Shown here one piece after another: positions 13,317 through 63,541 of a stretch of DNA of 64,000 nt. The first letter of the stretch is position 1. Each line of letters starts with the position of its first letter. The stretch is from Diospyros lotus (taxonomy: Eukaryota > Streptophyta > Magnoliopsida > Ericales > Ebenaceae), in contig NW_026267104.1 in the NCBI RefSeq assembly GCF_014633365.1, forward strand, positions 4,402,001-4,466,000. The letters are read 5' to 3'. The position numbers and the translations under genes were made by a program. The notes beneath the pieces are model-generated. The model searched no databases. It was not told the DNA's origin and saw nothing but the letters and a program-made list of their open reading frames with translations.

Positions 13317-14597
13317 CAACGATTTCTACAACTACCAACCGTCGGCCCAGATTATAAACATGGATAAATTTTTAAAAATATTATAACTTTTTAATTAATG
13401 TAATAAAATTCTACATTTGTTAAATTATTTAAGAAATTACTTGCGCTTCCTTCCCCTCATCATGCCACTTGGAACGTACCTCTTTCGCCGAGTTAAACTC
13501 AAAATATAACAAAACACATTATTTTTAATAAAGAACTATATTCGTCTAATTTTTATTTTTATATAATATTTGGACAAATTTTTAAGTTTTTTAAACTTCT
13601 TATTAATAATAACAAGATACAACAAAACATGATATTTCCAATAATGAGTTTAAGAAAAGTGAAAATTTTAGTATAAGTGTAGAAAGATGATGATAAGAAA
13701 AATAATTTGAGATAAATTAAATCTGCTCGTGTGATATACTGAATTACAATAAGTGTAATAATTTATTAAATAATTTAAAAATTATAATATTTTAAAAAAA
13801 TATTTAAAATATTCTTATAAATTTCTGGACAAACATGAGTTGTAAAATAATGGTTTTTAAGCATTAGGATAATTCATTAACGCATTGCCATCAATTAGAA
13901 TAAGATATTGAAGTGTATTTAATTGAATGATAATGTGAGTTTTTTTTTTTTAATAGAAAGGGTAAGATTAGGCTTGAAAAGAGTATTGGCATTTTATTTT
14001 TTTAGGTTAGACATTTGTAGTTGTAATTATTTTTGAAATTCACAAGACATGTAATTTGTAAAACATTTAAAAAATATAACTAGATAGATTTTTGTAGATG
14101 TTAATGGTAGTATCATTTTCCATTAATATTTAACAAGATATACACAATTATAAAATATTTGATAAATTTAATTAAATCATGTTAAATGGCACTAAAAGTA
14201 TCATTCATTTGTCCACCTCTTAAATTAGACACATTATGGCAAAAACAACACAAATTTTAAAGAGGGGCAACACAAGATTTTCTCTTATCTAACACATTCC
14301 TAATCACTAAACTACTATCTTGAAAGTAGATATACTCAACTAATAATTATTGGTAAAATAGTCACAATGTACTCATTACCAACTATTAATTAAATACACA
14401 TATATTTAGGTATTTTCTATTATTTACATTGAGAAAATAATAAATCTTCTAAGTTCACAAATTTAAATAAAGAGATAATTACATATCAATTTTTAATAAA
14501 TATTAATTATTAAATATTAAAATTGACTAAAAACTAATTCATCTCCAAACTTGTTTCCCATTGGTAAATTGATGTGAGGGTAGAACTGAAATTTAAA
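13317..14597. other. AT-rich intergenic stretch upstream of the PPR gene
   Basis: No gene seen. The first ~150 bases should contain the PPR promoter and 5' UTR; no convincing TATA box was picked out. The rest is AT-rich sequence without recognisable repeats. Confidence 0.5.
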
Positions 14598-16530: not shown

Positions 16531-18072
16531 CTACAACAACACTTCAGGATAAACAATATTTGTAGTAGAATCTAAACAATCTTTAGGAAGCAGAATACTT
16601 ATACGATCAAATAATGTACATCTGGACAATGCCACATATAATTGCCCATGGCTAAACACTGGTATGCGCAAATCAACCCCAACAAATTTCACAGATTGTC
16701 CTTGAGATTTATTAATGGTCAAGGCATATACCAATCAGACTGGAAATTGACGTCTTGTCATTTGAAAAGGCATTTCTGAAGAAGATGGTGCCAAAGATAT
16801 CCTTGGTATGAATGCCAAATTGCCAAACTTTTATCCAGTTAAAATTTGAGATTCAATTATGCGAGTGTCGCACCTAGTAACCATCAATCTTGTACCATTA
16901 CATAGTCCATCTTTCGGTGCAATGTTTCTCAACAATATTATAGGACAACCCACCTTCAACTCTAACTTAAAAGTTGGCAACCCAGGAAGATCCAATGAAT
17001 TTAAATATTCATCAGGATATTTATTTGTAATAGTAGGATCGACTTCATTATCTTCAGACATTTTATCTGCTGCAAGATAAGTATGTAATCTCCTTGGAAA
17101 GATATTCATTGCAGTAGTATTGATGTTACTGACATCATCGTTACGCGTAGACAGAATTGTGCGTTCAGTTAAAAATGTTGGGGTTGACATCTCTATTATG
17201 TTTAAGCGTGGGTAAACTGTAGAGAGTAATTCATTCAAATCTTGACATTTGTGTATTGTTGATGGAAGGTTAACGATTTCTTGAAGATTGGTCCCAATCT
17301 AAAAAAAGTGAAATCAATAAAAAAATAAGAATGAAAACACAATTTATTAATTTAAAATAATCTATATAATATGGCACAAAGGTTATAGTAGTGTTACCTC
17401 CATCAAGAAATTTGCAAAATTAGCATTTTCACGGTCTTCAAGATTCAAGCGCATATTCAAATCCAAAGTTAAGATATGTATATGCTTTCATAGAACAGAG
17501 TGTCTTAATGATGCATTTACAATTTGATCACGAACTCCTTTGGGTATAACTAGTAAGATTTGTCGAAAGTCTCTACCAAGAACAACAGTAATACCCCCAA
17601 ATGGCTTGTCACTATCACAAATATCCCTCAATGTACGATCAACCGCCTCAACATAATGTCTATGTTGCATCGGAACTTCATCCCAAATTATGAGTTTTGT
17701 TTCTCTAAATAACTCAGCTTGTAATAATTGTTTACTAAGCCCACAATTTGAATTTTCCAACACATCTAATGGGATGGAAAATGTTGAATGTACAGTGCGA
17801 CCTCCGACCAGTAACAATGATGCAATTCCAGATGAAGCCACAGTAATAACGATATGCCTAAGGTTGTGACATTTTAATGCTATCGTATTGTACAAAAATG
17901 TTTTCCCTGTTCCAGCACCCCCATTGAGAAAGAAAACAACTCCTTTATTTTGAAAAACTGAAGAAATGATTGTGTTATAAGCATTCCACTGTCCATTGTT
18001 GAGACAATCAATAGAAATTTGTGGATCTGTCTGTTGTGCCTCACTCTGCAATTGTCGATGTTCAAATATCAA
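16531..18072 (-). pseudogene. RepHel PIF1-like helicase domain
   Basis: Frames 18072-17488, 17238-16831 and 16734-16531. The first contains [12 protein letters not shown], Walker A in [42 protein letters not shown], Walker [10 protein letters not shown] and [20 protein letters not shown]. Motif III normally reads GGDFRQ, so the Arg is unusual. The second has the domain connecting to [10 protein letters not shown] and [10 protein letters not shown]. The third has [20 protein letters not shown] and [11 protein letters not shown] gap between 17487 and 17239 contains intron-like sequence. All core helicase motifs are recognisable but are spread over three frames. Confidence 0.85.
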
Positions 18073-18108
18073 TCGATTACCAACTACTGCACTCCAATTT
18101 GTAGTAGA

Positions 18109-19769
18109 TTATGGCATGGGTGGGAAGTCAATTAAACTTTTGTCTGATTCATGAAGCATTTGATTCAAAAGATGAAGACTATAATCTTTAATTTGAGCCT
18201 CAGTTGGGTTAGAAATGGCAAACAATGTACGAATTTTATGTGCAAGATCATCACATGTATGCATTGAGAATTGATTCCATAATGCACATGGATTTAGTGG
18301 AGAGCACTGGGTGAGAATAATACTAAACAATCTCCTCAATTGATATCCAATTTTCATAACTACAACCTCTTTCAAGCATTGTATCCATTCTTCATCATCT
18401 TCTAAAAGCCCCATTGCAACACATGATAATTTAAATGTATCATGCACAACATTATCGACCGTGCGTAAAGACTGAAATGACTTTGGTCCTTTAACAACGG
18501 TTAGTAACAAACGTAGATAAAATCTTTCACCACAATTAGGGCTAGCAAAATACATTCTACCAATTACATATCCCTTTTCTCTTGATTTCCATCTCTTTTC
18601 AGACTTGAGCCAAACATAATGTTGTGGAAATTCTTGATAAGTGAATGGACATTCATCTTTACTGCCAGCACAATATGCAAAGAAGCCAGTAAGAGTTGAC
18701 ATTTGTTGACCAACTCTAGATTGAATCGTTTCTAATGATTCTTCTGGGTTAAAAACAACGCGATGCATTCCAGGTAAATGAAGTGCCAATCGTATAACTG
18801 TTGGCATCTCTGCATGCAAAGGATGACCAAATATTCTCCAAGCAGCTTTTGGAGGGCCAATATACCTTGCATCAAGATATTGTTGAATCTCATTTATCAT
18901 TCCTAACACCATCGTTGTACGATCATAACCCTTATAAATGTACTTATGTATATACTTGACACATCTCATTCCAACACAAACTTCCACATTTATATGACAG
19001 TTGAAAAGTTTAGAAAGATATGCATTGTATGGTACGACATCCCTGTTATCAACTTCTTACCCCCTCACAGTATGTACTTGACCATTATTGCGACGACAAT
19101 AGATAGGGTATCCATCTTGATCCATAGTTATTGTTTCTGTAAAAACTCGAGAGTATCTCTTAGTGCATCTACCATTTTCCATACATGGTGCTTACGGATT
19201 TCGAGCACAACACGGTCCATGTACCATACAACATTTGATAGTTTCAAAAAGCATAGGATCATCTTTTGGGTTTAGAAATTCTGCAGAAACTAATTTGTCT
19301 ACTTGAGCACATGTCCAAATTTTGTCTAGGCCTTTAAGAAATAAAAGTGCATGCATATGATGGAGGCCTTGTTTTTGAAATTCAATTGTAAAAACATGTG
19401 CAACTTTATTTCCAAACACTTTATTTGTTTCTATCACCTTCATCAAACATTTTCTCTTCAACTCAAAAACACAGGCAATTAAATCAGGACGATCAATAGG
19501 TTTTTGATGTGGTAATAATGCTGAAGTAATTTCTGGCCAATTGGGATTTGCAGTCATGGTCAGGAAAATATCTGGGTGTTGGTTGTCTCGCGTGATACCA
19601 TTGAATCTTGAAAATTTTCAAACATATGTCTAGGACTACCAATAAATGAAAATGGCAAAATAAACCTTTGACCAATTTGACCAGGTCGCACATAATCTGG
19701 ATCCATATCCGACAACTCTTGGTAAAACTCAGCTCGAAGTTTCCCTTGGTTAAGCTTGTAGTATGTCAA
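18109..19769 (-). pseudogene. RepHel HUH endonuclease (Rep) domain
   Basis: Three frames in line: 19769-19560, 19557-19192 and 18987-18109. The middle one has TANPNWPEI and the HUH metal-binding motif in GLHHMHALLFL. The last has the catalytic two-tyrosine motif KYIHKYIYKGYD, followed by EIQQYLDARYIGPPKAAWRI and FGHPLHAEMPTVIRLALHLP, all standard for Helitron Rep. The catalytic residues look unaltered although the frame is broken between the HUH and tyrosine motifs (19191-18988). That gap still contains NPSC.ENGRCTK-like coding on the minus strand. Confidence 0.85.
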
Positions 19770-20189
19770 TCGATTTTGCTCAGTTGCAGCCTAAGCATCT
19801 ATCAAAAACTCTTGAAATAGTTTTCCACCTCTCAAAATTGTTGAATACTCTGTGGGTCATTCAAACAAACGATAACTATAAAAATTCATTTGAGTAAATC
19901 GATCAATTAAAGGTCGATCATACTGAACATTCCACAATTTCAGCTCAGGTTTCCATCAAAGCTCACCATATGGAAATAATAGAACATAATGTAATGGCAA
20001 ATATGCTGGGTGACATTCATTAATTTGCATTAACTCATTATTTCCTCGAAAATGTAAGATAATATCTCTCATTCCACTTGCCTCTGTTCCATCACCTGGT
20101 ATTACAATCGCAATCTCATCTGTAGTTGGTAGGTTATACCGACGTCGATCAGTTCTTGAATTGTAATGAAGATGAGCAGGTATATTGTG

Positions 20190-21242
20190 TCATGTCGAGT
20201 CTAATTGATGTAAAATGACATGAGCCTGTCGAAATTTATCTACAAATGCATTGACTTGCAACAAACTATCCTGAATAGTTTTGAGAACATCCATTCTCAA
20301 GATAGGATTTCTACGATTACGAATTTCTAAAGCTGAATCAGGGTCATAGATATATAGTTGAGCATAACTTGCATCCTGCTCTGGTTGTGGTTGTAGCGAT
20401 CCTGTTCGATGTCGCAATTCCCCATGAATTGTGAATGATGTAGGGCCCCTTCCACTGAGTACTCTAGGATCTAATGTAACACCAAGACTCGTAAAAGCAT
20501 TGGCTGCGTTGTACACTTGAGTATAACTTCGAAATGATTTTGATTGATCATTATTCCCATCATACAACGCCTGAAGTGGTGGAGGGGGTGTAATAAGTAA
20601 AGGTAGCATAACATTTCCTTCTAAACAGCAAGTTCCGAATAAGGGACGCTTCATAGATGATTTGGTCAATTTTTCATCCATCCAATGTAAGGCTGAATAA
20701 TAAGGACATAATACATCCATCTTGCCAAGATAATGACGGTAAGAATCTTTGTGTACTCGGACGTCAATTGATGTACTCATAGGCATATCTTCTAATTCAT
20801 CATTCGTATATAAATCTTCTTGAAAAAATTGATTTATAGGAGTAGACCTATGAATATTTGTGTATAAATAAAAATTTGTAAAACAAAATGGTATAAGTAA
20901 AGTATGTATTTCAAGATTATACACAATAGTTTACTGATTCCTTTGCGGAGCCAAAGATGTGATTGGTATAGAAAACGAACATGTAGAATGATGGGTAACC
21001 ATTATTCATTTTTGTGCCGAATAAGAATATTCAGTTATTGTTTCCCACTCCAGGCGAGTGCGATCGCGACGAATTGGTGTTAAAGAAGATTGTCTTGGGT
21101 TAATACATTCCTTTGATCTTTCTCGTTCTCGTCGCAAGCGTTGTCCCAATTAATATGTAGAACATGACTTTTGATTTTTTTCACGTTCTCGTCGTGCACG
21201 TTGGGCCAATGCAGCTTTTGATAACACATTATCATTGTGTGC
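20190..21242 (-). pseudogene. RepHel N-terminal region
   Basis: From 21242, after a TATAG acceptor, the frame reads AHNDNVLSKAALAQRARRERE, the basic N-terminal stretch common to plant Helitron proteins, with a repeated RRERE pattern and internal stops. The frame 20924-20190 then carries the conserved zinc-like and linker region: CPYYSALHWMDEKL, CCLEGNVMLPLL, AFTSLGV, GRGPTSFTIHGELRHRTG and YAQLYIYDPDSALEIR. It ends in a stop at 20190. The assignment rests on these phrases, which are characteristic of plant helitron helicase-like proteins. Confidence 0.8.
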
Positions 21243-37700: not shown

Positions 37701-40700
37701 TCTTCTGATTGTACAGTTTTGGCAGACCCAAATAAAAAGTATTTGTTTATATATATTGGCCATTATATATGAAGAAATATGTTTTCCACCAATTTGAATC
37801 ATATTATTTCATTGTGTGAAAGACCTAATGGCTGATGAGAGTAGAGTTAAAAATAGTGAAATAGTGAGCAAATAGTGCATGATATCAAATTTTATTCACA
37901 TCTTGGAACTTAGAGGAATGAATCCAAAAGATTAGAATTGTTTCTACATTACTTGGTTTCATCTCTTCCCTTTACTTCCTATTTGGTTCCTGCTGTCTAT
38001 TTTCCCCTGTTTTTTGCTCTGATCTTGGAAATGGCATGAAATTTTTACAAGCAAACTGTTGACTCCTGCATACCCCCCCCCCCCCCCCCCCCCCCCCCCA
38101 ACACCCAAAGCCCAACACAAGACACCCCAAAACACACACTATGAAATAACGAACTACAAGAAACAAAAAAAAGGACGTAACCCTCAACCAAAATATCTGA
38201 CTTGATAAATCTTATCTGCTTCTTAAAAATGCATGCTTCTTATATGTGTTCTCACTTTGAACCATTTTTTCCCTTGGGAATCAGTCAACTGCACAAGAAT
38301 CTGAGAAGCCTCCTGCTGTCATTACTGCTGAAGAAACCCCTCCCAAGTCCCATGGAGAAAGTCCAAATCCATCTTCTCCAACATTAAGAAGGAGATTTGT
38401 GTAAGAAATTATGGTTTTCTCTGCACTTCTTTTTCCTTTTTACTTTCAGATAAAAATAGCGTTACCTTTTAATTGGTGAAGTCTATCTCATTTTATGTTT
38501 CATTATTAAATTAAACAGGCCCCAGTCAAAAATTGAAGAAAGACAGCATAATAGCGTTGAGAGTGATAATTCAGCTTCGGTCAAATTGGATTCTGCTGCA
38601 TGGACTCATGTTGAAAAGCACCGGTATTTTCTGCTTTTAGAAATATTGTAGAAGTGACTAAAGTACAGAAAGCAACTGCAATAGATTTGGGTCACTGACT
38701 TTGCACCACCTTTTGGGCTCCTGATGCCTCAATATGTTCTTTCAAGTGCTTCAATGCTTCGTGTATGTCATACTAGTTTTTGTTGCTTCTTTACCCTTTT
38801 ACAGACAGCTACAAGAAAATTTGACAGATGAAATGGTTGTGTTGGCACGGCAACTCAAGGAAAGCAGTCTTGTGATGAGTCAATCCCTCAAAAACACTGA
38901 GAAGGTAAGTTCTGGAATCTACTATGTAAGTTTAGATTACTTATTGTCTTGAGGTATCAACTTATGTGTTTTTGGCTACTCCATATATATCTTGCCTGGC
39001 AATCCTTTCATTGCATATATACGAACACATGATATTGGAAGTTTTTGAATGTACATTAAATAGAAGTAAAAATGCATCTGCAGATTACCAGTTTGATATA
39101 GTCACCCTATTATAATATGTTCTGCGCTCTTCCTCTAAAATTCTTTGCTATTATCTAGAACCATATATATATGTATATAGGTATGTCATGTACCTGGGGG
39201 CATACTGTAATAAATAAAAATAGTGGGAAGAAGACGCTATAAATCATTGTATAGGGGCAGTAGTGAGCTGTGTAGCAGTAGTGAGCTGTGTACTTAGGCG
39301 GTTATTTTGGCAAGAGATGTAGCATGTGAAGGAAGGCTTTAAATTGTGGCCGACCTTATTCTTTGGGCCATTGAGAATTTTGAATGAGAATCTGAATTTC
39401 CCTCTCAATCTACTTCTCCATTTCTCTCCCTATTCTTCTAATTTTTTCCCTCCCCTTTACAAGATCCTTCTCGTTCTTGCTGTGATCTCTACCATTCAGA
39501 AGAGATCAGTTCTTAAAACATTGCTAGATCCTTGCGGATCTAACAATTTGGTATCAGAGCTGAATTCTAGGACTCGCGAGTGACAGAGATGTCAATGGCT
39601 AAGGGCACATGGATGAAAGGATTGGAGGCTCAAGTGTAGCAGTGTGGATCTTCGATGGCAGACTTGCAGGCAAGGGTAGATCAATTGGAGTTGGGATCGG
39701 ATAGGAACCATGAGACGATCATTGCCATGGACAGGAAATTGGATGTGGCGGTAACACATATCTGAGAGGAGCTACAAGGATTTATGGCGATGTTTGCAAG
39801 GCAGCATCAGGTAAGCATTCCACTTGATTTTCCCTCTCGAGAGAGGACAAATCCGATTCTACCTGGACAAGGCCGAATGGATCCTATGATACTAGGGAGA
39901 AGAAGGAATTCGAGGATCACTGAGACGTCAGTTGGGGAAGAAGATCAAGGTGAGCTAGGGGAGGCCAGGTGGGAACGGCGACAGGAAGCGTCAGTAAACC
40001 ACAATCCGCATGGTTTACCCATGTCGAGGTTGGAAATTCCCTTGTTCGATGGGACCAACCCCCGCTGGTGGGTTAGGAGGTGTGACAGGGTGTTCGAGTG
40101 GTATGGAGTGGTAGAAAGGCAAAAGGTAGCAATAGCAGCAACATTTCTTAACGATGCGGGGGACGCTTGGTATCAAGGGTGGTCCAAGGTCTAGGAATTC
40201 TACAAGTAGGAAGAATTTGTAGAAGAATTTTGTGAGAGGTTTGGAGATTGGGGGCTATCTGATGTGGTTGAAGAATTTAATAAAATCAAACAGGTTGGAA
40301 TGCTGATGGAGTACCAACTTAGGTTTGAGGAGTTGAAGGCCTTAATGCTCAACCACAACCCCTTCTTGACCGAGGCTTATTTCGTCTCAAGTTTTATAAG
40401 TGGCTTGAACAAGGAATTTAGACCCCTGGTGAAAGTGCTAAGGCCACGTACCCTCAAGCATGCTGTTGACAATGCTAAACTGCATGAGGTGGAGGTGGAA
40501 GCATTGATGAAGAAGCAACGAGCAGTGAATATGAGTGTTGCCCCAATGAATTCACTGCTTAGCAGGAGTTTTACCAAGGAGTGGGGACGGGGATCCCCAG
40601 GCATGAAGAACTTGGCGCTATTAGCCCCCAACTCCCAAGGAGGGAAAACCATGGAACAGAGGAAACAAGCGGGCCTCTGTTTCAGGTGTGGAGATAAGTA

Positions 40701-43700
40701 CTATGTGGGACATTAATGTAGGATACAACTCTTATGATTAGAAGGGGAGGAAGGGGATTCAGTGGAAGAGGAGGAAACAACACACACACAAAAGAAGAAG
40801 AAGAAGAAGAAGAAGAAGAAGAAGAAGAAGAAGACAATGGTGAGACGTCCCACATGCCTTTACGGGACTCACCAACAGTAAGATAATTAAGGTGGAAGGG
40901 CAAGTGGAGGAGATTAAGCTGATGATTGTTGTAATCACTTGTATTAGATTAGCTTTTAGATTGTCTCGGGAAATTTTTCTGTTGCAAATCAGTGTGTTGC
41001 ATTTGAGTATCACTTGTGTTATTCTAGAAGGCTTGTTTTTAGAAGGGTTAGTTAGTGGTATAGACTGGTTAGTTGGTTGTATCTACTGGATAATTATGTT
41101 ATTATTTACCGCCTCTATGGTGTATAAATAGAGGTCGGGTGAGAGGCATTTTCTATGTCTTGTGCTAAGAAAGAGAGAGGAGTATGCGCAAGGGTAACTT
41201 GAGAGAAAAGAGGGGATATCTTTGTAATCTCAGGTTGGGAAACTCTTATAGTTCTGGGTATAAGGCTGTAGAGAGTTGTGCATGTAATCCTTGAGTTTTT
41301 CGTTCAAGATAGTGAAGATTAGTGTCTCGGACAATCTGGATGTAGGTCTTCTTTAGAAGACTGAATTAGGATAAATTTGGTGGTGTTCTTGTTTTGATTT
41401 CATGTTCTTTATTTTCTGTATTTCATTATTTCTTGTTACTATGAGGATTTGAGAGATTCTGTGGGTGGGTCTTTTGCAAGTGCGAGTGTCATAGAGAGAG
41501 CTGTGCATTTATTCTAGCAATGATCTTAATTGATAGTGGGAGTACCCAGAGTTTCTTGGATGAGAGCATGGCTAGGAGGTTGAGTGCCCCCTGATTCCCA
41601 CTCAACCATTAACAGTGACAGTGGCTAATAGGAATAAGGTGATGAGCAAGTCTGCTTGTGCAGGGTTTTGTTGGGATATGCAGGGAGAGGGATTCGAGGC
41701 CGATTTGAGGCTACTGAAATTAGGAGGATGTGATGTAGTCTTGGGGGTCGATTGGATGGAAAATGTTAGCCCGATTTGTTTTTGACTTTAACAAAATGGA
41801 GGTGACATTTGAGAATGAGGGAAGAAAGGTGACGCTTAGAGGCAACAAGGAGGTGGGGGTATGCAAGATGATTACGGGCAAGGGGTTACAGAGGCTATTC
41901 AAACACAAGATGAACCAAGTGGCTCAGTTGTTCTCTGTTCAGGCCACGGAGGAAGGAGAAGATGAGCTAATTACGGAAGGGGGGGTTCATATTAACCATC
42001 AGAAGTTCATCCCCCATCCAACACTAAGGTACACCTTTCTAATCTACTTAATATACTCCTAATTGAATTTGAGAATTTATTTGTAGAGCCTCAATCTTTA
42101 CCCCCAAACTGAGCCATTGACCACACCATCAACCTAAAACCCCACACAGAACCTGTTAACATTTGTGCCTACCGATACCCTCCTAACCAGAAAATGAAGA
42201 TTGAAAAATTGGTTTAAGGAGATGCTCCACAAATCCCTCATAAGACCCAGTCACAACCCTTTTGCATCCCGAGTGTTGCTGGTAAAAAAAAAAAAAGATG
42301 GTTCCTGACGATTTTGTATTGATCGATTTTGTATTGATTACTGCCAGCTAAACAAAATAACCATCAAAAACAAAATTCCCATCCCACTCATTGATGACCT
42401 GCTAGATGAACTTAAACATGCCATTATCTTTTCTAAATTGGACTTGAGATTTGGATACCATCAAATCTAGATGAACCCAATGGACATTTCCAAAATCGCA
42501 TTTAGAACACACCAGGGCCAATATGAGTTCCTTGTCATGCCCTTTGGGTTAACAAATGCCCCAACCACTTTTCAATCTCTAAATGAACCAGATTTTCGAA
42601 CCATACCTCAGAGATTTTATTCTTGTATTCTTTGATGATATACTTTTATACATCCCAATCTTTGAACTCCACCTAAAACATTTGAGGACTACATTTGAAA
42701 TTCTTAAGATCAACAAGTTGTATATTAAGAGATCAAAGTGTGCCTTTGCACAAGGCTAGGTGGAGTATTTGGGATATATCATATTGAGCCAAGGAGTGAG
42801 TATGGATCTAAAAAAAGTGGTCGCCATGACCAACTGGCCAAGATCGATGATTGTTAAGTCCCTAAGGGGTTTTTTTGGGATTAACCAGTTATTATAAAAG
42901 GTTTGTGAAGGGGTATGGTGGCATAAGTAGGCCACTTACATATTTATTGAAAAAGGATAGCTTTGAGTGGTTTCATAAGGTAGAAATTGATTTTGAGTCG
43001 CTAAAGAGAGCTATGAGTGAGGCCCCAATGCTCGGCCTGCCTGATTTTAGCAAAACATTTGTGGTGGAGACAGATGCTAGTGGAATGGGCATAGGGGCAG
43101 TGCTCATGTAAGAAGGCAGACCCTTAGCATTCATAAGTCAGGCCCCAGCTCCAAAACATATGGGCCTCAGTGTGTACGAAAATGAGTTGTTAGCCGTTAT
43201 TTTTGCAGTGAAAAAATGGAGGCATTATTTGGAGGGAAACTAATTTATTATAAAAACGAATCATGAGAGTTTGAAGTTTCTACTACAACAGAAACTTCAC
43301 ACCCACTTGCAGAGGAAAGGGATGACTAAACTAATGGGCTTGGACTACAAAATACAGTACAAGAAAGGGAAGGAAAACATTGCGACAGATGCCTTGTCTA
43401 GATGCCCTGAAGATGGGACAGTTGCTGCTATCTCAGCCCTAGTTCCAGAGTGGTGTCAAGAGGTGGCTAAGAATTATGAAGGGGACGAGCAGACCAAAAC
43501 TCTTTTGGAACGACTGATAATTGCTCCTGCAAGTAAAGTGGGGTATACGCTGACAAATGGGGTGATAAGATTCAAAGGTAGATTGGTGGTTGGAAACAGC
43601 GTAGAACTGAAGCGTAGGATACTGCAGGCCTTACACGAATCCCCCCTTGGTGGCCACTCCGATATCCAAAATACTTATCACAAGGTGAAGCAACTGTTTA

Positions 43701-45265
43701 GGTGGCCTAAGTTGAAAGAGGAGGTGATGAAGTTTCTCCTCGCATATGATGTGTGCAAGAGATGTAAGTTGAAAGAATTTTGAACGAGAATCTGAATTTC
43801 CCTCTCAATCTACTTCTCCATTTCTCTCCCTATTCTTCTAATTCTTTCCCTCCCTTTTTCAAGATCCTTCTTGTTCTTGCTGTGATCTCTTCCATTCGGA
43901 AGAGATCAGTTCTTAAAACATTGCCAGGTCCTTGCGGATCTGACAAGGTATTAGTTAAGCATTGAATTATATTTATTTACAGTATTTTGTTAAATCTGAC
44001 GAATTACATGTATCTTGCTTCTCTTCTTCTTTCTTTTTACTTTTGTTAAAATTTTTCTGGCATTTAAGCCTCAGGCTACATACTTGAGTAAATCTCACTG
44101 TGCATCACATTTTGTAGCCTAGACTGACATGTTTTTACACCTTTTTGAGGTGGATTGGAGGACTTTTTGTTATGTTTGTCGAATATTGGGCCGATGTAAT
44201 AGGCTGTAGGCCTTGTGTAAATAAAAGCCCACGGATAAGCATAGCTGGAGGAATGTTCCAGCATGCTACCAGACAAGTTGTAAAGCAAGTGGGTGGGATA
44301 ATCGTTTTTAGCCCCCACTTAGGCCATAGATCAGTATAAAAGAAACTGATTTATGCCTACCCCACATGTTGAATGAATTTTGGAAATTAGTTTCCCCCTC
44401 AATTCTCGTTACCTCTCTCTCTCTAATCTCTCAATTTCCCCCTACGTTCTCTTGTGACAGCCATTCTCAAGTGATTGAGAATTCACTTTGTCAGATCAGG
44501 AATCTGACACTTTTTTCTTTTCTCCAGGGCGGGGGAAGTTGGTCTCTTTGAGAACTTGACTTTTTGTTTTTTTAATATATCACATTATAACAAAGGTTTG
44601 AAATTGATGTCAGGCTGATCTTTTTTCTGATAGTTGGACTAATTTTTAAGAAAGATCCATGGTGATTTCTGTTTTTGGATTGCTTGTGCTTCTCAAGGGA
44701 TATATACATATCAAAGCCTACTATAGGGAGCACTTCTTTAAGTTACTGCAGAGAACAGAAAATTGGTAATGTTAGCATTGTGCAAAATTTTGCCACTGCA
44801 GTCTGGGGATGCTATCACCACCTTTCCCATTCAATTTTGCCACAAATATTTTCCCCTCAAAGATGGTAATACATCAGTGCTATGTTCACCTGACCCAATC
44901 ACTGCACCACTAGAAGCAAGACCTCTGACAGCGGCCCTTCAACCTCTTATCATAAATTGACCTTGTTGGTGCCACCAGAAGCACGTTGAAGTGCCTCGTT
45001 GCCGGTGCTGTGCCAATTCCTCGCTTAGCTCGTCTGTCTCCTCATGTATTCATCTATTTCTGATAGCTTACTCGGAACCTGAATGCAGATACTGGATTCA
45101 ACAGAGAAGGCAGTGGAGAATAGCTTGGCGAGCACCGGCCACGCAAATACACGTGCCATGGAAATATACTCAAGGAGCTTCAAGACCACGTGCTTTACGT
45201 GGCTGGTGATACTTCTAATGACGTGTGTATTCATCATGGTGGTGCTTCTCATCCGCGTCACCTAG
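34775..45265 (+). CDS. USE1: USE1-type SNARE (vesicle transport protein), seven exons
   Basis: Tail-anchored SNARE of the ER involved in retrograde Golgi-to-ER fusion (family knowledge). Exons: 34775-34858, 35220-35287, 36701-36773, 38285-38400, 38519-38623, 38805-38904, 45089-45265. All introns have GT and AG borders and the codon phases join, giving 240 residues. The start [18 protein letters not shown] and the [16 protein letters not shown] segment match plant USE1. The SNARE-type helix runs from [17 protein letters not shown] through [17 protein letters not shown] (exons 6-7). A single C-terminal membrane span follows ([20 protein letters not shown]). Intron 6 is 6184 bp because of retrotransposon insertions (39184-43945, 44168-44509), all in intron sequence, so the reading frame is untouched. 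Intron 3 carries a 27-base poly-C tract. Any effect on splicing is inference. Confidence 0.93.
36363..36415. repeat. Possible SINE 3' tail in USE1 intron 2
   Basis: CCCACCTAATGGGATTACAG followed by GTGGTTGTTGTTGG resembles the tail of plant tRNA-derived SINEs. No A and B boxes were found upstream, so this may be a truncated copy or a coincidence. Confidence 0.25.
38073..38099. repeat. Poly-C tract (27 bases) in USE1 intron 3
   Basis: An uninterrupted run of C about 185 bases before the exon 4 acceptor. Its complement is a 27-base G run able to form G-quadruplexes. The exact length is uncertain, because homopolymers of this size are often mis-sequenced. Confidence 0.85.
39184..39545 (+). repeat. 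5' LTR of the gypsy element (362 bp)
   Basis: Starts TGTCATGTACC and ends TCTAACA, three bases before the PBS. Its last 172 bases match 43774-43945. The target duplication AGGTA precedes it. Confidence 0.9.
39784..40726 (+). pseudogene. gag of the gypsy element
   Basis: Frames 39784-40194 and 40264-40716, separated by stops. They contain the retrotransposon gag region ([58 protein letters not shown]) and end in a zinc knuckle ([12 protein letters not shown]) in which a stop replaces the residue before the last Cys. Confidence 0.85.
40786..40834. repeat. CA and GAA microsatellite in gag-pol linker
   Basis: A short ACACAC run followed by about 14 AAG/GAA triplets. Expansion here probably broke the frame. 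Confidence 0.85.
40927..41519 (+). mobile_element. Solo LTR (593 bp) nested in the gypsy element
   Basis: Starts TGTTGTAATCAC and ends ATTCTAGCA, bordered by the perfect 5-base duplication ATGAT (40922-40926 and 41520-41524). Removing it and one ATGAT rejoins the protease frame of the host element (KLMI to LIDSG). It contains a TATA box (TATAAATAG at about 41123) and downstream leader-like sequence, so the plus strand is the likely sense. Superfamily not determined. Confidence 0.9.
41525..41765 (+). pseudogene. Aspartic protease region of the gypsy element
   Basis: Begins [19 protein letters not shown] with the D-S-G active-site motif, directly after the solo LTR, and continues with [10 protein letters not shown] before frameshifting into the linker ([14 protein letters not shown]). 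Confidence 0.75.
42180..43270 (+). pseudogene. Reverse transcriptase and RNase H of the gypsy element
   Basis: RT motifs are scattered over frames: [23 protein letters not shown] and FFDDIL (the YxDD active site). Then [13 protein letters not shown] (42875 onwards), followed by RNase H ([35 protein letters not shown]). Several stops and at least three frameshifts make it non-functional. Confidence 0.85.
43271..43783 (+). pseudogene. RNase H end and integrase zinc domain of the gypsy element
   Basis: [20 protein letters not shown] is the RNase H to integrase linker. [20 protein letters not shown] ... DVCKRCK is the HHCC zinc domain of integrase. The frame then runs straight into LTR sequence; the DDE core is missing. 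Confidence 0.85.
43774..43945 (+). repeat. Truncated 3' LTR of the gypsy element (172 bp)
   Basis: Matches 39374-39545 with about ten differences and ends TCTGACA before the duplicate AGGTA. The left part of the LTR is missing; the junction with integrase shares AGAATTTT. Confidence 0.88.
44168..44509 (+). mobile_element. Solo LTR (342 bp) in USE1 intron 6
   Basis: Starts TGTTATGTTTGTC and ends ATCTGACA, bordered by the 5-base duplication CTTTT (44163-44167 and 44510-44514). The TATA-like TATAAAAG at about 44335 and a CT-rich stretch downstream give plus-strand sense. It is similar in size and 3' architecture (CTCTC, TTCCCCC, TCAGATC..GATCTGACA) to the nearby gypsy LTR, but is a different family member. 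Confidence 0.85.
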
Positions 45266-48205: not shown

Positions 48206-48769
48206 TTATGGATTGTGGCCAAGCCGTAGCTCCAAATCCAGTCCATCTTCTTCACTTCCACCTCTCATCTCCTGATCCGTATCTTCTTCAAGCAGAACCG
48301 GAGCAAATCGTAGGCTTAAGCTCAAGCGCCAATCATCTCCAGATGGTCTGAAGATTTGTGGGTTTTGACCACTGAATTCATTGCTTGGTCTTGCAGCCGT
48401 TGCCGCCGGAGCAGGAAAATACGTCCGATATCCAACCTCCGATACCGCAGAATTATTATAATAAGGGGCGAGGTGGTTTGAAACTGGCTGCAAGAAGATA
48501 CCTGGATTGGTACAAAACTGTTCATCATGCTTATTATAATTATGACTTGAATGGATCAAAGGTGCGGCAGGCCGAGTTTTGGCTTTATCTTTGCGATGAA
48601 TATTCATGTGGCCGCCCAAAGCCTGCGCCGTGGTGAATCCCCGCTTGCAATACACGCACTCGTAGGACCGGCCCGTGCCGGCCACCTCGCTGTTGTTCGG
48701 CGCCGGCGTCTGATCATCATGTTCTTCTTCTTCGCTTGTCGACAACTCTTCATGAAGATCAGATGCCAT
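48206..48769 (-). CDS. C2H2 zinc-finger protein, TAC1/SUPERMAN type, with EAR repression motif
   Basis: Probable nuclear transcriptional repressor of the single-finger C1-1i (SUPERMAN/TAC1/RABBIT EARS/LATE) group. The start is ATG 48769-48767, since the in-frame codon two places upstream is TTG; 187 residues, intronless. One zinc finger: C38-X2-C41-X12-H54-X3-H58 with the plant-specific QALGGH (49-54) and [10 protein letters not shown] following, closest to TAC1-like proteins. The N-terminus is acidic (TSEEEEHDD). The C-terminus carries LDLELRL (177-183), the EAR motif that recruits TOPLESS-type corepressors. Upstream of the ATG, the 5' leader contains a 25-base poly-C and a CT repeat (minus strand). 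Which member it represents is uncertain; TAC1 and LATE are the nearest by finger sequence. Confidence 0.92.
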
Positions 48770-48801
48770 GTGCAAAAAATTCAGGGCTTGGACTGAAACC
48801 C

Positions 48802-58057: not shown

Positions 58058-58188
58058 GAGATAGTGGGTGTGTGTGTGAAACAGAGTGAATTCACTTTCA
58101 TAGAGAGTGAGAAAATAGATTCATATTGATTGAATGTGCCTATGCGCACAGAAAGAAAGAGAATCGGAGAGAAATTTCAGTAATTGTG

Positions 58189-59144
58189 ATGTCTCCCCCT
58201 CAATCTGGGATTGAGGAAACGGGAAATTATACGCAAACCCTAATCCCGGGCCTCCCGAACGATCTCGCGGGGCTAATTCTAGCGTTCGTTCCGTATTCTC
58301 ACCATGGCCGTCTCAAATCCACCTGCAAATCCTGGAAAATCTTCTTCTCCCGCAAAACCCTAATCTCTTTACGGCAAAAGTACCTCCCTCCCTCTCGCCT
58401 TTCCCACCTCCTCTGCATCTTCCCTCAAGATCCGTCGATCGTCTCCCCTTACCTCTTCGATCCTCACAACCCTCGGGCTTGCTGGTTTCCTCTTCCTCCG
58501 ATGCCCTGTAATCCCCATGTTTATGGCCTCTGCAACTTCACCTCCGTTTCAATCGGCCCCCATCTCTATGTCCTTGGAGGCTCCCTATTCGACACCCGAT
58601 CCTTCCCTCTCGATCGCCCTTCTTCCACATCCTCCGCTTTCCGATTCAACTTCCTTACTTCTTCCTGGGACCGTCTATCACCCATGCTCTCTCCTCGCGG
58701 TAGCTTCGCCTGCGCCACGGTGCCTGATTCCGGCCGGATTCTTGTTGCCGGGGGTGGCTCCCGGCACACCATGTTTGGGGCCGCCGGGAGTAGGATGAGC
58801 TTGGTCGAAATGTATGACGCTCGCAAGGATGAGTGGGTGGCCTTGGATGGGTTGCCCCGATTTCGAGCTGGATGCGTCGGATTCTTTGTTGGAAAAGGGG
58901 AACATGGAGAATTTTGGGTGATGGGGGGATACGGCGAATCGAGGACGGTTTCCGGGGTCTTCCCGGTGGATGAGTATTACAGGGATGCTGTGGTGATGGA
59001 CTTGAACAATGGTGGCAAGTGGAGGGAGCTTGGGGATATGTGGCAGGAAGGGGAAAGGAGGCGCCTTGGGAAAATTGTTGTTGTTGAGGATGATCATTTG
59101 GATACTCCTGGCATTTTCATGCTTGAGGGCACTGATATCTGCAG
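58189..59144 (+). CDS. OR23-like: F-box/kelch-repeat protein, OR23-like, first exon
   Basis: Probable substrate adaptor of an SCF ubiquitin ligase. The start is the ATG at 58189 (MSPPQSGIEE); the open frame extends upstream only to a TTG at 58126. The F-box lies at about residues 19-62 (LIPGLPNDLAGLILAFVP ... CKSWKIFF). Kelch-type segments follow: VSIGPHLYVLGG, GRILVAGGGSR with SLVEMYDARKDEWVALDGL, and RAGCVGFFVG with FWVMGGYG. The sequence fits F-box/kelch protein OR23. The frame runs on to a stop at 59175, but GATATCTGCAG/GTATCT at 59144 is a good donor where the family continues with another ~90 residues. I therefore treat this as exon 1 (318 codons plus two bases). Exon 2 was not found before 64000. 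An LTR element occupies the presumed intron. Alternatively the gene now ends at 59175 as a truncated protein. Confidence 0.85.
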
Positions 59145-60171
59145 GTATCTTCCTACAAACTTTTGGGCTTTCTAGTGTGCTGTTATCTGGTTTCTCTGCA
59201 AGAATAATTGAAAAGTGATATCAGCCGCCAATTTCTCCATTTTAAAGATGTTATAATATCTTATTAAGCTATTTTAATTTTGTTGATCATTTCATTTAAC
59301 CTGAAATGGTGAATCCAAGCAGTAATACATATATGAATGAGTTGTTTTTTGTGATGTTGCATTACATCGGTCAAGGGTAAGAAACCTACTTGTGTTCTTT
59401 TGATTTCAGTGTTGGGTGGTTAGACAAGTATGCCCTCTGATACGTGCTTCATCACACATTTATTTGTAAAGTTGCTTGCTTTTTTATTTTTTTAACTGGA
59501 GCCTTTAAAATTAATATGAATAAATCATTCCTAGTAACTGCAGAAGACGATCATTTGATTTAGTTTGGCAAATTTAGTTACCTTTGATAAGTTCTGACAA
59601 AGATATTACACTATCAACAACCTTTGATTGTCAATCTGTAAGACAGGGTTGCAATGGGTAGGGCATGGGTTGGGGAACACTAACAGCTGCAACCCGTTTA
59701 TAGATCACCCCATCTACCCCTGACCCACTACCATTCAGATCCTGCTTATGACTCATTTAACCCACCGTTGGCAAAATGCACGCCATCCAGCTCAGAGTAT
59801 TTTCTTACCAGAGTATCAGATTTTGCATTATTTCATCAATTTCCCATTTACCTTTTGTCAATTCCAATGAGATTAGCTCAAAACTAGTTTAGCATAAAAT
59901 TTTAAAATATGAACCAGTGTTATTAAAGGCACACCTAGGCGCAAGGAGCATCAAGGTGCACCCTGGGCACTTGAAAGCTTTCCAGGCAGGCGTAGACCAA
60001 AAGGTGCGACAAGGCGCGCCTCAGCCCAAGGCGTGCCTTGGGCTTTTTAGCTATTTTTCAAGGTTTTTATTTCACTGTTTTTACTTTATTTATTTTTTTA
60101 CTATTTAGGGTTTAAATTTATTGTTTCAACTACAAATTTGACAATAAGTAAAAAGGCTCCTACTTCAAATG
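59145..60171 (+). other. Presumed OR23-like intron, proximal part
   Basis: T-rich, intron-like. No exon 2 homology was seen. It contains a GC-rich dispersed sequence at 59925-60050. Confidence 0.5.
59925..60050. repeat. GC-rich AGGCGC/GCGCCT dispersed sequence
   Basis: Words such as CACCTAGGCGCAAGG, AAGGCGCGCCTCAGCCCAAGG and GCGTGCCTTGGGC form short internal inverted and direct repeats (CCTTGGGC/GCCCAAGG). It resembles a dispersed plant repeat. No terminal structure was resolved. Confidence 0.45.
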
Positions 60172-60531
60172 TGTCATGAACCTAGGGTTTGTGATAGGTT
60201 AAAAGAGGAATTGGGGAAGAAAATTAGATTGAAGGAAGGGGAAAATCAGTAGATAGAGGGATTAGATATTAAGAGAAAGAGAGGGAGAAATAGAGAACAA
60301 AAAAGAGAGGAAGAAGAACGAGAGAGGAAGAATGGTAGAGAGAAAGAAATTAGAATTTCAATTCCATAATTTTCAGCATACTCTAACAAACCAATAGCAG
60401 TAGCCTTCTATAGGCATTACAAGCTCAATAGCAGCCCAGCACATGCACCCCATGTGCTTCTAAAATATCTCCTAACTATTATTATAATATTATTACTATA
60501 TTGCCCTTGAATTACTACTTGGGTCATGACA
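60172..60531 (-). repeat. Left LTR (3' LTR of the minus-strand element, 360 bp)
   Basis: TGTCATGA ... TCATGACA, an 8-base terminal inverted repeat. It differs from the right LTR by roughly nine or ten substitutions, mostly transitions, and one 7-base indel. The TATA box is mutated here (complement of CTTCTATAGG). Confidence 0.92.
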
Positions 60532-60543
60532 ATTCCCCCCTTC
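60532..60543 (-). other. Polypurine tract of the LTR element
   Basis: Minus strand GAAGGGGGGAAT directly before the 3' LTR. Confidence 0.85.
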
Positions 60544-60594
60544 CTCGAGAGAGTTGTTGTCCCCAAGAACTTACAACAATTTAGTCATTGCGCC

Positions 60595-62004
60595 TCAACC
60601 AATACCAACTCTCTCTAGCTTGGTTGTTCTTTCTTTTATCATTCCCTTTCTAGGCCGCTTCTTCTTTGTTCTTGGATACTCATCAGCTGAAACAAAAATG
60701 ATAATCAGTGCAATCACAGCTGCATCTTCCTCCAAGGAGTGGCATACCATTTCCCGTGGGTTGGTAATAGCTACCAAATTAAGATAGCTTGTACCCATAG
60801 ATTGAGGATCCAATATGATGCCAAATCCAGTCAATACATCCTCATCTAGTGCCTTCATTGATTTTAGCTGTTTTCGGCCACCGGCAATAGCTATAACTTG
60901 CAGTCCTTCAGCCTTCAATTGATGTTGCTCCTCAACCTCAAAATTTACAGCAACATTGTGTCACATTTTAGGATCAGTGCTACACACCTTCACAACATTA
61001 GAAGATATTTCAGCTACAAATAGGCCATCTTCATAGCAGTTCTCATCATCAATCTGATTTGTAGACTGATAACCCGACTTTGATGCCTCAATGCTGTAAT
61101 TCCTATCATTGTATTGAGGTTCCCCAACAATTAAACCATCTGCCCCTGTCAGTAATTCTGCCACATCTTCGTCTTGTTCATCGGACTTTTTCTGAAGCTC
61201 ACTCTCAACATTTTTCTCCTCCCAATCAGCAACATCTTTTCCCTTTTGTTGGCTGCCATTCCCCTCTATTTGGACTTCTTTTTCAGCAATATTAGATGAT
61301 CCCTCTGCATTGTCTTTCCTATCAATCTGTTCATTACAAGTTCCCTTCGAAGGGTGTAATCCATCACCAATATCATCTCTGATGCTGCCAACATCCTTCT
61401 TGATATTGCTGCCTAATTCAAAATACCCAAGCACATACTCGGAAGTCAATGATGAATCAGTTTCCCACCTTCTTGCCTTCTCCTTCGGCTTCTCCATTTT
61501 AAGAAACTCCTCCTTATTAAAACTTCCACGATAGTCATCAAAGTATTCGGCGGGAAAACTATAATGATACTCTTTAGATAGTATCATTGCAAATTCTTGC
61601 AACTTCTCGCGAAACATTCGACCAAATTCCTTGCACTCCTCATCAAACCCACTGCTGGTTCCTTTGTCCAATTGGTTGATCCCCTTCTTATGTTCCTTGT
61701 TGCTGCCAATTGAAAATGCAGCCTTCTTTGGCTGCCATTGAGGATCCATTCCCACTGAAAATGAAGCATTCTGCTTCATGTATGCACTGCCTCCCCTAGC
61801 TTCATGAGTAGGACACCCCACTGAAAATGCAGCCTTCTTTGGCTGCCATTGATGCTCCATTCCAACTGAAAAGGAAGAATTCTTCTGCTGCAATTGAGAC
61901 TCCAATGGTCTCAGATATGCACTGCCACCCATGGCTGAATTTTCACCAACAACATACTTCGACGGCCAAGGAATGGGAATTATATACCTGCTTCTGTTTT
62001 GCAT
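60595..62004 (-). CDS. Unknown protein encoded by the LTR element, one in-frame TGA
   Basis: Starts at ATG 62004-62002; 470 codons in one frame with a single internal TGA at 60963-60961 and a final TGA at 60597-60595. The first part is 347 residues. It carries a duplicated block: SSFSVGMEHQWQPKKAAFSV and again ASFSVGMDPQWQPKKAAFSI. Next comes a mixed region with FGRMFREKLQEFAMILSKEY, then a long acidic, Gln/Glu/Asp-rich stretch, and after the TGA a segment with GFGIILDPQSMGTSYLNLVA ending in a basic KKKRPRK cluster. I recognise no gag zinc knuckle, protease, RT or integrase. It could be a captured cellular sequence, a highly derived gag, or a novel protein of this element family. Function unknown. 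Confidence 0.6.
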
Positions 62005-63155
62005 GTTGTAGCAGTTCCTAGACTCGTCTCAATTGCAACTCAAGAGTCGGGCACCCACTCCTCTTTGCCTTTCCACTTTGACCCAAGTTAGCCTAAATTT
62101 ACAGCCAAGATCTACCTCTTGTTTCCTTTGCTGACAACCTGCTCTGATCTGCCACTGGATCACCTTCGGATTCCAAAATCACTAGCTTAGGTTGGAAGGC
62201 AACCACAACCGTAGCACACACAGTGTCGATCAAGGCAGCAACGCCCCACAGAACTCTGGTCGGAATTCTCGATCAAAACCACAACACCACAGCCGCGCCT
62301 ACAGGAAGCTTATCGGTATGGTCGGACTGGTCTTCCGGTCTGGGTCATCCGCTTCACCCTCGACAACTCATGCTAGCCTTGGACAGTCACAACCCTCTGG
62401 CTGTCCACGGCACCACCTTCGACAGACTCCTTACTCACTACAATCCTAACCGACTAGCCGAGAATCACCGGTTCCGACGTCGCTCCTTAAGTTTGCTTGG
62501 ATGGTCGAGATCAGCTCTGCTTGCGATCGCTGTGGATTCACGATCGCCTCCCCGCCGACTCCTCTTCCTCACCCAATCACCGACCACGGTTGGAGGACCA
62601 CCACCTCTTTGAGTTCGCCTTGATCGACAAGTCCTGGGAATCGAGTTACGATTGTGGTAGGCTCCGATCGCTCTAATCTGCTTCTCTTCGATGCCTTAAA
62701 TTGTTGTTCAACCAACTTTCTAGCCTAACTTCCTGCCTCGCTCTAATTAGAATTGAGAGAACTGCGTCTTCCTCCTCTGGTTCTACCTACTCACTGGTCG
62801 CGTTTGATAATGGTCGCGACACCTTCCTCGTTTGTGTCCCCCCTGCCTCGTCTTCTCGTATGCGAATTCTAATTATCGCCTAAACCTCCTTTCGCTAGCA
62901 CTCATTGCAACCGATCGCTATGGACCAGCAACCTAACTCACCCCCGACACTGCTATTTGAATTCACTGGACCAGATGCGCGACTTTTGAAACCAGCTCGC
63001 AACTCCAAATCCAACTTTCGTTAATCGCTGGTCTGCTACACTTTCGAAATTCGCCGACCTACGATTAGCTTCCAGAAACGACCAGCTGCTCTGCTCAATC
63101 AATTCCACTGAGAATTGACTACCAAAATTGCACGAATCACAGCCGAAGAACGACC
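62005..63155 (-). other. Leader region of the LTR element between PBS and ORF
   Basis: About 1.15 kb, moderately GC-rich with many CGATCG/TCGCGAC words. Short frames on both strands (for example 62223-62612 and 63168-62953) show no domain. It may hold a packaging or dimerisation signal or an intron. Nothing decisive is seen. Confidence 0.5.
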
Positions 63156-63167
63156 GCTCTGATACCA
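63156..63167 (-). other. Primer-binding site for initiator-Met tRNA
   Basis: Minus strand TGGTATCAGAGC, an exact match to the usual plant LTR-element PBS, two bases from the LTR. Confidence 0.9.
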
Positions 63168-63169
63168 AT

Positions 63170-63536
63170 TGTCACGAACCTAGGGTTTGTGATAGGTTAA
63201 AAGAGGAATTGGGGAAGAAAATCAGATTGAAGGAAGGGGGAAGGGGGAAATCAGTAGATAGAGGGATCAGATATTAAGAGAAAGAGAGGGAGAAATAGAG
63301 AACAGAAAAGAGAGGAAGAAGAACGAGAGAGGAAGAATGGTAGAGAGAAAGAAATTAGAATTTCAATTCCATAATTTTCAGCGTACCCTAACAAACCAAT
63401 AGCAGTAGCCTTATATAGGCATTACAAGCTTAATAGCAGCCCAGCACATGCACCCCATGTGCTTCTAAAATATCTCCTAACTATTATTATAATACTATTA
63501 CTATATTGCCCTTGAATTACTACTTGGGTCATGACA
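63170..63536 (-). repeat. Right LTR (5' LTR of the minus-strand element, 367 bp) with TATA box
   Basis: Mate of 60172-60531. On the minus strand it contains GCCTATATAAGGC (about 63420-63408), an intact TATA box that is mutated in the left copy. The right-hand copy is therefore the better candidate for an active promoter. Confidence 0.92.
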
Positions 63537-63541
63537 AAATG

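What the first reader, a model, noticed from the sequence alone, without database searches (positions are those of the whole stretch)
60172..63536. LTR element whose only long ORF is neither gag nor pol
Complete structural hallmarks (AAATG duplication, paired LTRs, PBS, PPT) enclose a 470-codon frame with no recognisable retroelement domain. The tail before the PPT still resembles a gypsy polyprotein end. This is either a family with a novel protein or a retrotransposon that captured a host gene. Directly seen: structure and ORF. Inference: novelty and capture.
Basis: partly seen in the sequence, partly recalled or inferred. Interest (0 to 1): 0.8.

Follow-up and report, generated by a model that had tools for sequence, protein, structure and literature searches.

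The report
Mosaic non-autonomous plant LTR retrotransposon
This is one copy of a large plant family of jumping genes that lacks the enzymes to move by itself; it carries a patchwork protein that is not a standard retrotransposon protein, of which a short part looks kept by natural selection while the rest is swapped between copies, in some relatives for a piece of a plant motor-protein gene.

Summary
The element is real: 3,365 bp, minus strand, LTRs 60172-60531 and 63170-63536, TSD AAATG, iMet-type PBS, PPT. The 470-codon frame is interrupted by a TGA at 60961-60963 (347 + 121 codons). No Pfam match above cut-off. It is not unique: its core peptide has at least 150 matches in the host genome (150 of 1134 candidates scored), and 18 of 20 fetched loci are LTR-bounded elements of similar plan. 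ORFs are mosaics: N-terminal core, variable middle, basic C-terminal tail. In one subfamily the core is fused to the C-terminal half of a Ty3/gypsy capsid; in another the ORF ends in a kinesin motor fragment. The window copy joins 5' and 3' parts that are closest to different copies. The core shows purifying selection (dN/dS about 0.2-0.5); the repeat and middle regions do not. Best reading: a non-autonomous family related to Ty3/gypsy, mobilised in trans and reshuffled by template switching (both inferred), its ORF standing where gag should be, perhaps as a reduced Gag-like adaptor. Neither an autonomous partner nor a host homologue of the core was found, but neither search was complete. New variant of a known kind.

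The parts
60167..60171 (.). target-site duplication AAATG, left
60172..60531 (-). 3' LTR (element sense), 360 bp
60532..60545 (-). polypurine tract AGGAAGGGGGGAAT
60598..60693 (-). basic C-terminal tail (VSADEYPRTKKKRPRKGMIKERTTKLERVGIG), conserved between subfamilies
60595..60960 (-). second part of the frame, 121 codons and stop; C module
60961..60963 (-). in-frame TGA that interrupts the ORF
61037..61236 (-). stretch without a match in the fetched loci (100-nt steps)
60961..62004 (-). first part of the frame from its first ATG, 347 codons
61459..61668 (-). conserved core (residues 121-190 of the frame 62028-60595), the part with the clearest purifying selection
61706..61886 (-). internal repeat, two copies of 70 nt (61706-61775, 61817-61886)
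62029..63155 (-). leader between PBS and ORF
63156..63167 (-). primer binding site TGGTATCAGAGC, iMet-tRNA type (assignment recalled)
63170..63536 (-). 5' LTR (element sense), 367 bp
63537..63541 (.). target-site duplication AAATG, right

Best explanation
A copy of a large non-autonomous LTR retrotransposon family related to Ty3/gypsy. Its RNA would be made from the LTR, primed by initiator tRNA-Met, and reverse transcribed and integrated by the proteins of an autonomous gypsy element (inferred; no partner identified). The single ORF stands where gag stands. It keeps an N-terminal helical core and a basic C-terminal tail; the stretch between or after them is swapped between subfamilies: half a gypsy capsid, acidic spacers, or a kinesin fragment. 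Template switching between co-packaged RNAs is the likeliest source of the swaps (inferred from the mosaic). Selection on the core suggests that the protein did something for the element; I propose a reduced Gag-like adaptor, the helix joining the partner's particles and the basic tail binding RNA (inferred, weak). This copy's ORF is broken, so this copy is probably a passive product.
For: LTR, TSD, PBS and PPT. No gag or pol domain. 150 core matches, 150 of 1134 candidates scored; 18 of 20 fetched loci LTR-bounded. Core fused to a capsid C-terminal half in P0016, P0013 and L036 and 12 loci that match the fusion over nearly its whole length. Different gag-type N-terminus plus capsid half plus the window's C module in L020 and L021. 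Kinesin in L011 by Pfam (7e-16) and PDB sequence. Mosaic map. dN/dS of the core 0.23 pooled and about 0.5 by codon model, 2dlnL 38, also without capsid-bearing copies (2dlnL 27). Basic tail in 17 of 20 loci, omega about 0.5, 2dlnL about 9.
Against: No autonomous element with matching LTRs was found, and the only gag-pol inside a family element (L019/L029) is an embedded gypsy with its own PPT and 3' LTR. The ORF is broken here and in several fetched copies. The three kinesin loci lack the tail. The C module is only weakly constrained (2dlnL about 5). Structure models are poor outside one helix. The adaptor role has no direct evidence.
Confidence: 0.65

Rival explanations
1. Ordinary deletion derivative (TR-GAG or LARD type): the ORF is leftover coding sequence without function, and LTR, PBS and PPT suffice for mobilisation in trans.
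For: The window ORF is broken; repeat and middle regions evolve near neutrality; capsid half retained in one subfamily; most of the 12 fusion loci have stops (10 of 12).
Against: The core is constrained in copies without capsid and many copies keep long open frames (up to 584 aa).
Confidence: 0.25
2. The core is a diverged gag N-terminus, so the ORF is a heavily reduced gag (compatible with the best explanation; its confidence is counted apart).
For: In P0016 and L036 the core directly precedes the capsid C-terminal half. A gapless 42-column hhalign match to the gag N-terminus at window 39589 onward, P=0.011; 7 and 9 of 1000 shuffles reach the score of the window gag and the L029 gag.
Against: hhalign probability only 3.7%, 19% identity; against single gags P was 0.008, 0.085, 0.36 and 0.3; L020 and L021 N-termini do not match (91 and 202 of 1000 shuffles). 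Helical stretches may score by chance.
Confidence: 0.4
3. The core is a captured host gene fragment, as the kinesin piece of related copies is.
For: The family does carry a kinesin fragment in 5 loci; the core has no Pfam match.
Against: Protein searches gave 14 relatives on short metagenome contigs and one uncharacterised Diospyros lotus protein, no host family. Core matches fetched with enough flank are mostly inside LTR elements (18 of 20). But only 20 loci were checked and the host search is not exhaustive.
Confidence: 0.1

Closest known systems
TR-GAG non-autonomous LTR elements of plants (passages of PMC9784723)
   Same: Two LTRs around one ORF, no pol, mobilised in trans
   Different: TR-GAG elements encode a GAG domain; the window ORF has none that Pfam sees, only relatives carry half a capsid
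Bs1 of maize (passages of PMC13317346 and PMC7264820)
   Same: LTR element that carries host gene pieces in a chimeric ORF
   Different: Host capture is shown here only in related copies (kinesin), not in the window copy; the family here is large and has a constrained non-host core
LARD (large retrotransposon derivatives; recalled, no call)
   Same: Internal region without gag-pol between LTRs
   Different: LARDs are large and have no ORF, as I recall; this one is 3.4 kb with a conserved ORF family
Ty3/gypsy elements of the same genome (window 39374-43946; L019/L029)
   Same: Same PBS type and a similar PPT in L019/L029; the capsid C-half matches that of one subfamily
   Different: They have gag and pol; their gag N-terminus does not clearly match the core

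Membership tests
LTR retrotransposon | paired LTRs with TG...CA ends, TSD, PBS next to the 5' LTR, PPT next to the 3' LTR | tested here: met
Ty3/gypsy (Metaviridae) | order of pol domains and RT phylogeny | not testable with these tools
   the element has no pol; the link rests on the capsid half of relatives and on PBS and PPT type
TR-GAG | ORF with a GAG domain | tested here: not met
   no gag match in Pfam for the window ORF; relatives P0016 and L020 score 14.3 and 14.7 bits against a cut-off of 24.1 for PF03732
TR-GAG | no pol between the LTRs | tested here: met
gene-capturing LTR element (Bs1-like) | host gene sequence inside the element | tested here: inconclusive
   met in L011 and by DNA in 5 loci with the core; not found in the window copy; kinesin donor gene search unanswered
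TRIM | total length well under 1 kb and no ORF (recalled) | tested here: not met
   3,365 bp with an ORF

The most novel reading that the evidence does not exclude
The family has replaced Gag by a new, selected two-part adaptor (a helical core that docks into partner particles and a basic RNA-binding tail), with a free slot into which other sequence, host exons included, can be loaded and copied: a natural swappable-cargo retrotransposon.
Probability: 0.2. Interest if true: 0.75.

Novelty: new variant of a known kind. Interest (0 to 1): 0.5.

Why it matters
Non-autonomous LTR elements are mostly seen as coding-free or as carrying plain gag. A family in which a short core and a basic tail are kept while the rest is exchanged, and in some copies includes a host motor-domain fragment, would let one ask what the least protein is that a parasite of a retrotransposon needs, and how such elements shuffle exons.

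Tried and rejected
Pfam on the ORF parts: only sub-threshold matches, taken as chance. An autonomous version of the family was suspected in L019/L029 and rejected: a second PBS, an own PPT and an own 3' LTR mark an embedded gypsy element. Structure as a guide to fold: mean pLDDT 50 in both models, so no fold search was run. A search with a canonical gag N-terminus, meant for a deep profile, gave 2 proteins, both without the N-terminal region. Searches of the own genome for the kinesin donor, for P0009, for the LTR and for the gag N-terminus did not complete. Paper searches: 'Diospyros', 'LTR retrotransposon', 'non-autonomous' together gave 2 papers, neither on this by title and start of abstract; 'Diospyros lotus', 'retrotransposon', 'genome' gave 29, of which 6 were listed and seen as titles and starts of abstracts. 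Searches were read as listings, apart from passages of PMC13317346, PMC7264820 and PMC9784723.

Rows dropped before counts: L001-L004, L007 and L008 repeat other loci or the window and were left out of the selection and mosaic tables; the codon sets kept only hits over at least 65% of the region, without identical rows; the tail set left out duplicate loci, five second-frame hits and hits above E=1e-4.

Full report
WHAT IS THERE. The element lies at 60172-63536 on the minus strand. LTRs are 60172-60531 (3') and 63170-63536 (5'), 10 mismatches in 360 aligned positions and 7 gap columns, flanked by AAATG on both sides. The PBS reads TGGTATCAGAGC, the PPT AGGAAGGGGGGAAT. At a recalled rate of 1.3e-8 per site and year the LTR divergence would mean roughly 1 million years. 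The frame 62028-60595 is open except for a TGA at 60961-60963: 347 codons from the ATG at 62004, then 121. Pfam gave nothing above cut-off for either part, and PDB nothing for the second part, the only part tried.

RELATIVES IN PROTEIN DATABASES. Two searches gave 4 and 15 relatives, the 15 including the 4. Thirteen show the core, two (P0012, P0015) only the C module. Fourteen come from short contigs of ENA or JGI; one (P0009) is named 'uncharacterized protein LOC127799296, Diospyros lotus'. P0004 has core and basic tail together.

THE HOST GENOME. The window is G000:C16:4402001-4466000 of a genome of 630 Mb in 43 contigs. Size and the step in contig length after C15 agree with Diospyros lotus, 15 chromosomes, 617.66 and 647.31 Mb (abstract of PMC11524226); this is inference and the species was not tested. 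DNA search with the frame: 54 matches, 40 of 1070 candidates scored. Protein search with the 77-aa core: 150 matches, 150 of 1134 candidates scored; by my count from the table 122 of 150 have no stop inside, and the longest open frame is 584 aa. These counts are lower bounds.

ANATOMY OF RELATIVES. I read 20 loci (L009-L028) picked from the matches. In 17 a script found an LTR pair around the ORF, and for L019 the other LTR lies in L029: 18 of 20. L016 and L027 showed none. Apart from L019 (about 7.1 kb with its embedded gypsy), these elements measure 3.0-3.9 kb, limits taken from alignments that are partial in some. Of the 17 plus the window copy, 8 have the exact PBS 12-mer and 10 have changes in it (my reading). 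The ORFs differ in their middles. L022-L025 have a module that contains ARSIDHFMEELEHE. L010, L011 and L018 run in frame into a kinesin P-loop region; Pfam (7e-16) and PDB sequence comparison were run on L011 only, and by DNA the module is shared by 5 loci that also have the core. L020 and L021 have another, gag-type N-terminus, half a capsid and the same C module as the window copy. The basic tail was found at E below 1e-3 in 17 of 20 loci; the three without it are the kinesin ones, whose ORFs end in another lysine-rich stretch. Twelve more loci (L032-L043), fetched because they match the core-plus-capsid protein P0016, carry that fusion; 10 of these 12 have stops inside it. The tail was seen in 10 of 12 at E up to 0.001; these loci are short and may end before it.

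CAPSID LINK. P0016 residues 46-139 are 69% identical over 94 residues to P0018, which carries Pfam PF03732 and PF19259. P0016 itself scores below both cut-offs. In P0016 and L036 the core sits directly before this half, where the gag N-terminus and the N-terminal half of the capsid would be. So the core may be a diverged gag N-terminus. hhalign gave a gapless 42-column alignment to an alignment of four gag N-termini, led by the window gag, P=0.011 but probability only 3.7%; against single gags P was 0.008, 0.085, 0.36 and 0.3. Shuffles that reached the real score: 7, 9, 91 and 202 of 1000. I treat this as a lead, no more.

MOSAIC. In 100-nt steps the window copy is closest to L009, L017 and other core-bearing copies over its 5' ORF part (94-98%), to nothing fetched over window 61037-61236, and to L019-L025 or L031 over the C module (95-99%). 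The kinesin module without its upstream part covers 26 further places in full and 3 in part, beyond the 5 full matches (40 of 208 candidates scored). Template switching between co-packaged RNAs explains this most simply (inferred; described for plant LTR elements in passages of PMC13317346).

SELECTION. Pooled pairwise dN/dS: aa 1-60 0.50 (45 pairs), repeat 0.94 (135), core 0.23 (190), aa 190-267 0.77 (105), C module 0.71 (28). Codon models on fixed trees: core about 0.5 (30 sequences, 2dlnL 38 against omega=1), repeat (20) and middle (15) not different from 1, C module about 0.5-0.7 (9 sequences, 2dlnL about 5). Core without the capsid-bearing copies: about 0.35-0.5 (19 sequences, 2dlnL 27); capsid-bearing copies alone: about 0.5-0.7 (11 sequences, 2dlnL 8). 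Basic tail about 0.5 (28 sequences, 32 codons, 2dlnL about 9). Limits: pairs are not independent, omega and kappa were scanned on a grid, dead copies decay neutrally, and pooled and model figures differ; the direction is the same.

STRUCTURE. AlphaFold gave one helix of fair confidence (118-145 of the 347-aa ORF) and low confidence elsewhere; the model of P0016 was poor throughout.

READING. Shown: a large and diverse family, LTR-bounded where read, without pol of its own in the copies read, with mosaic ORFs, a kinesin fragment in relatives, and protein-level constraint on the core. Inferred: mobilisation in trans by a gypsy element, template switching, and a Gag-adaptor role. Not shown: the partner, the kinesin donor, the origin of the core.

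COMPARISON. It works like TR-GAG elements (passages of PMC9784723) but the defining GAG domain was tested and not met. It resembles Bs1 in carrying host sequence (passages of PMC13317346 and PMC7264820), shown here only for relatives. Hence a new variant of a known kind.

Its fields were scrambled by a formatting slip: the confidence of 0.4 shown there under the best explanation belonged to the rival 'the core is a diverged gag N-terminus'. Mended on recount: the kinesin count (26 full and 3 partial further places, not about 28), and the C-module identity range.

Noticed in passing
window 39374-43946 (+): A decayed Ty3/gypsy element: LTR remnants of 173 nt at 94% identity (39374-39546, 43774-43946), PBS, gag with several stops, and an integrase zinc-binding domain.
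   Followed up: partly
window 40927-41519: What looks like a solo LTR of 593 bp (TG...CA) inside that gypsy element, flanked by ATGAT on both sides.
   Followed up: partly
window 17488-20924 (-): ORFs of a probable decayed Helitron: a PIF1-like helicase (Pfam 2.4e-62) and two neighbouring ORFs without Pfam match that look Helitron-like by eye.
   Followed up: partly
L019 with L029 (G000:C4, about 5716762-5723907): An element of the family with a gypsy gag-pol embedded between leader and C module; it has a second PBS, its own PPT and a 3' LTR, but no 5' LTR copy was seen.
   Followed up: partly
window 58126-59175 (+), 11451-13319 (-), 48206-48775 (-): Ordinary plant genes: F-box/kelch, PPR with E motif, and a C2H2 zinc finger protein.
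   Followed up: no
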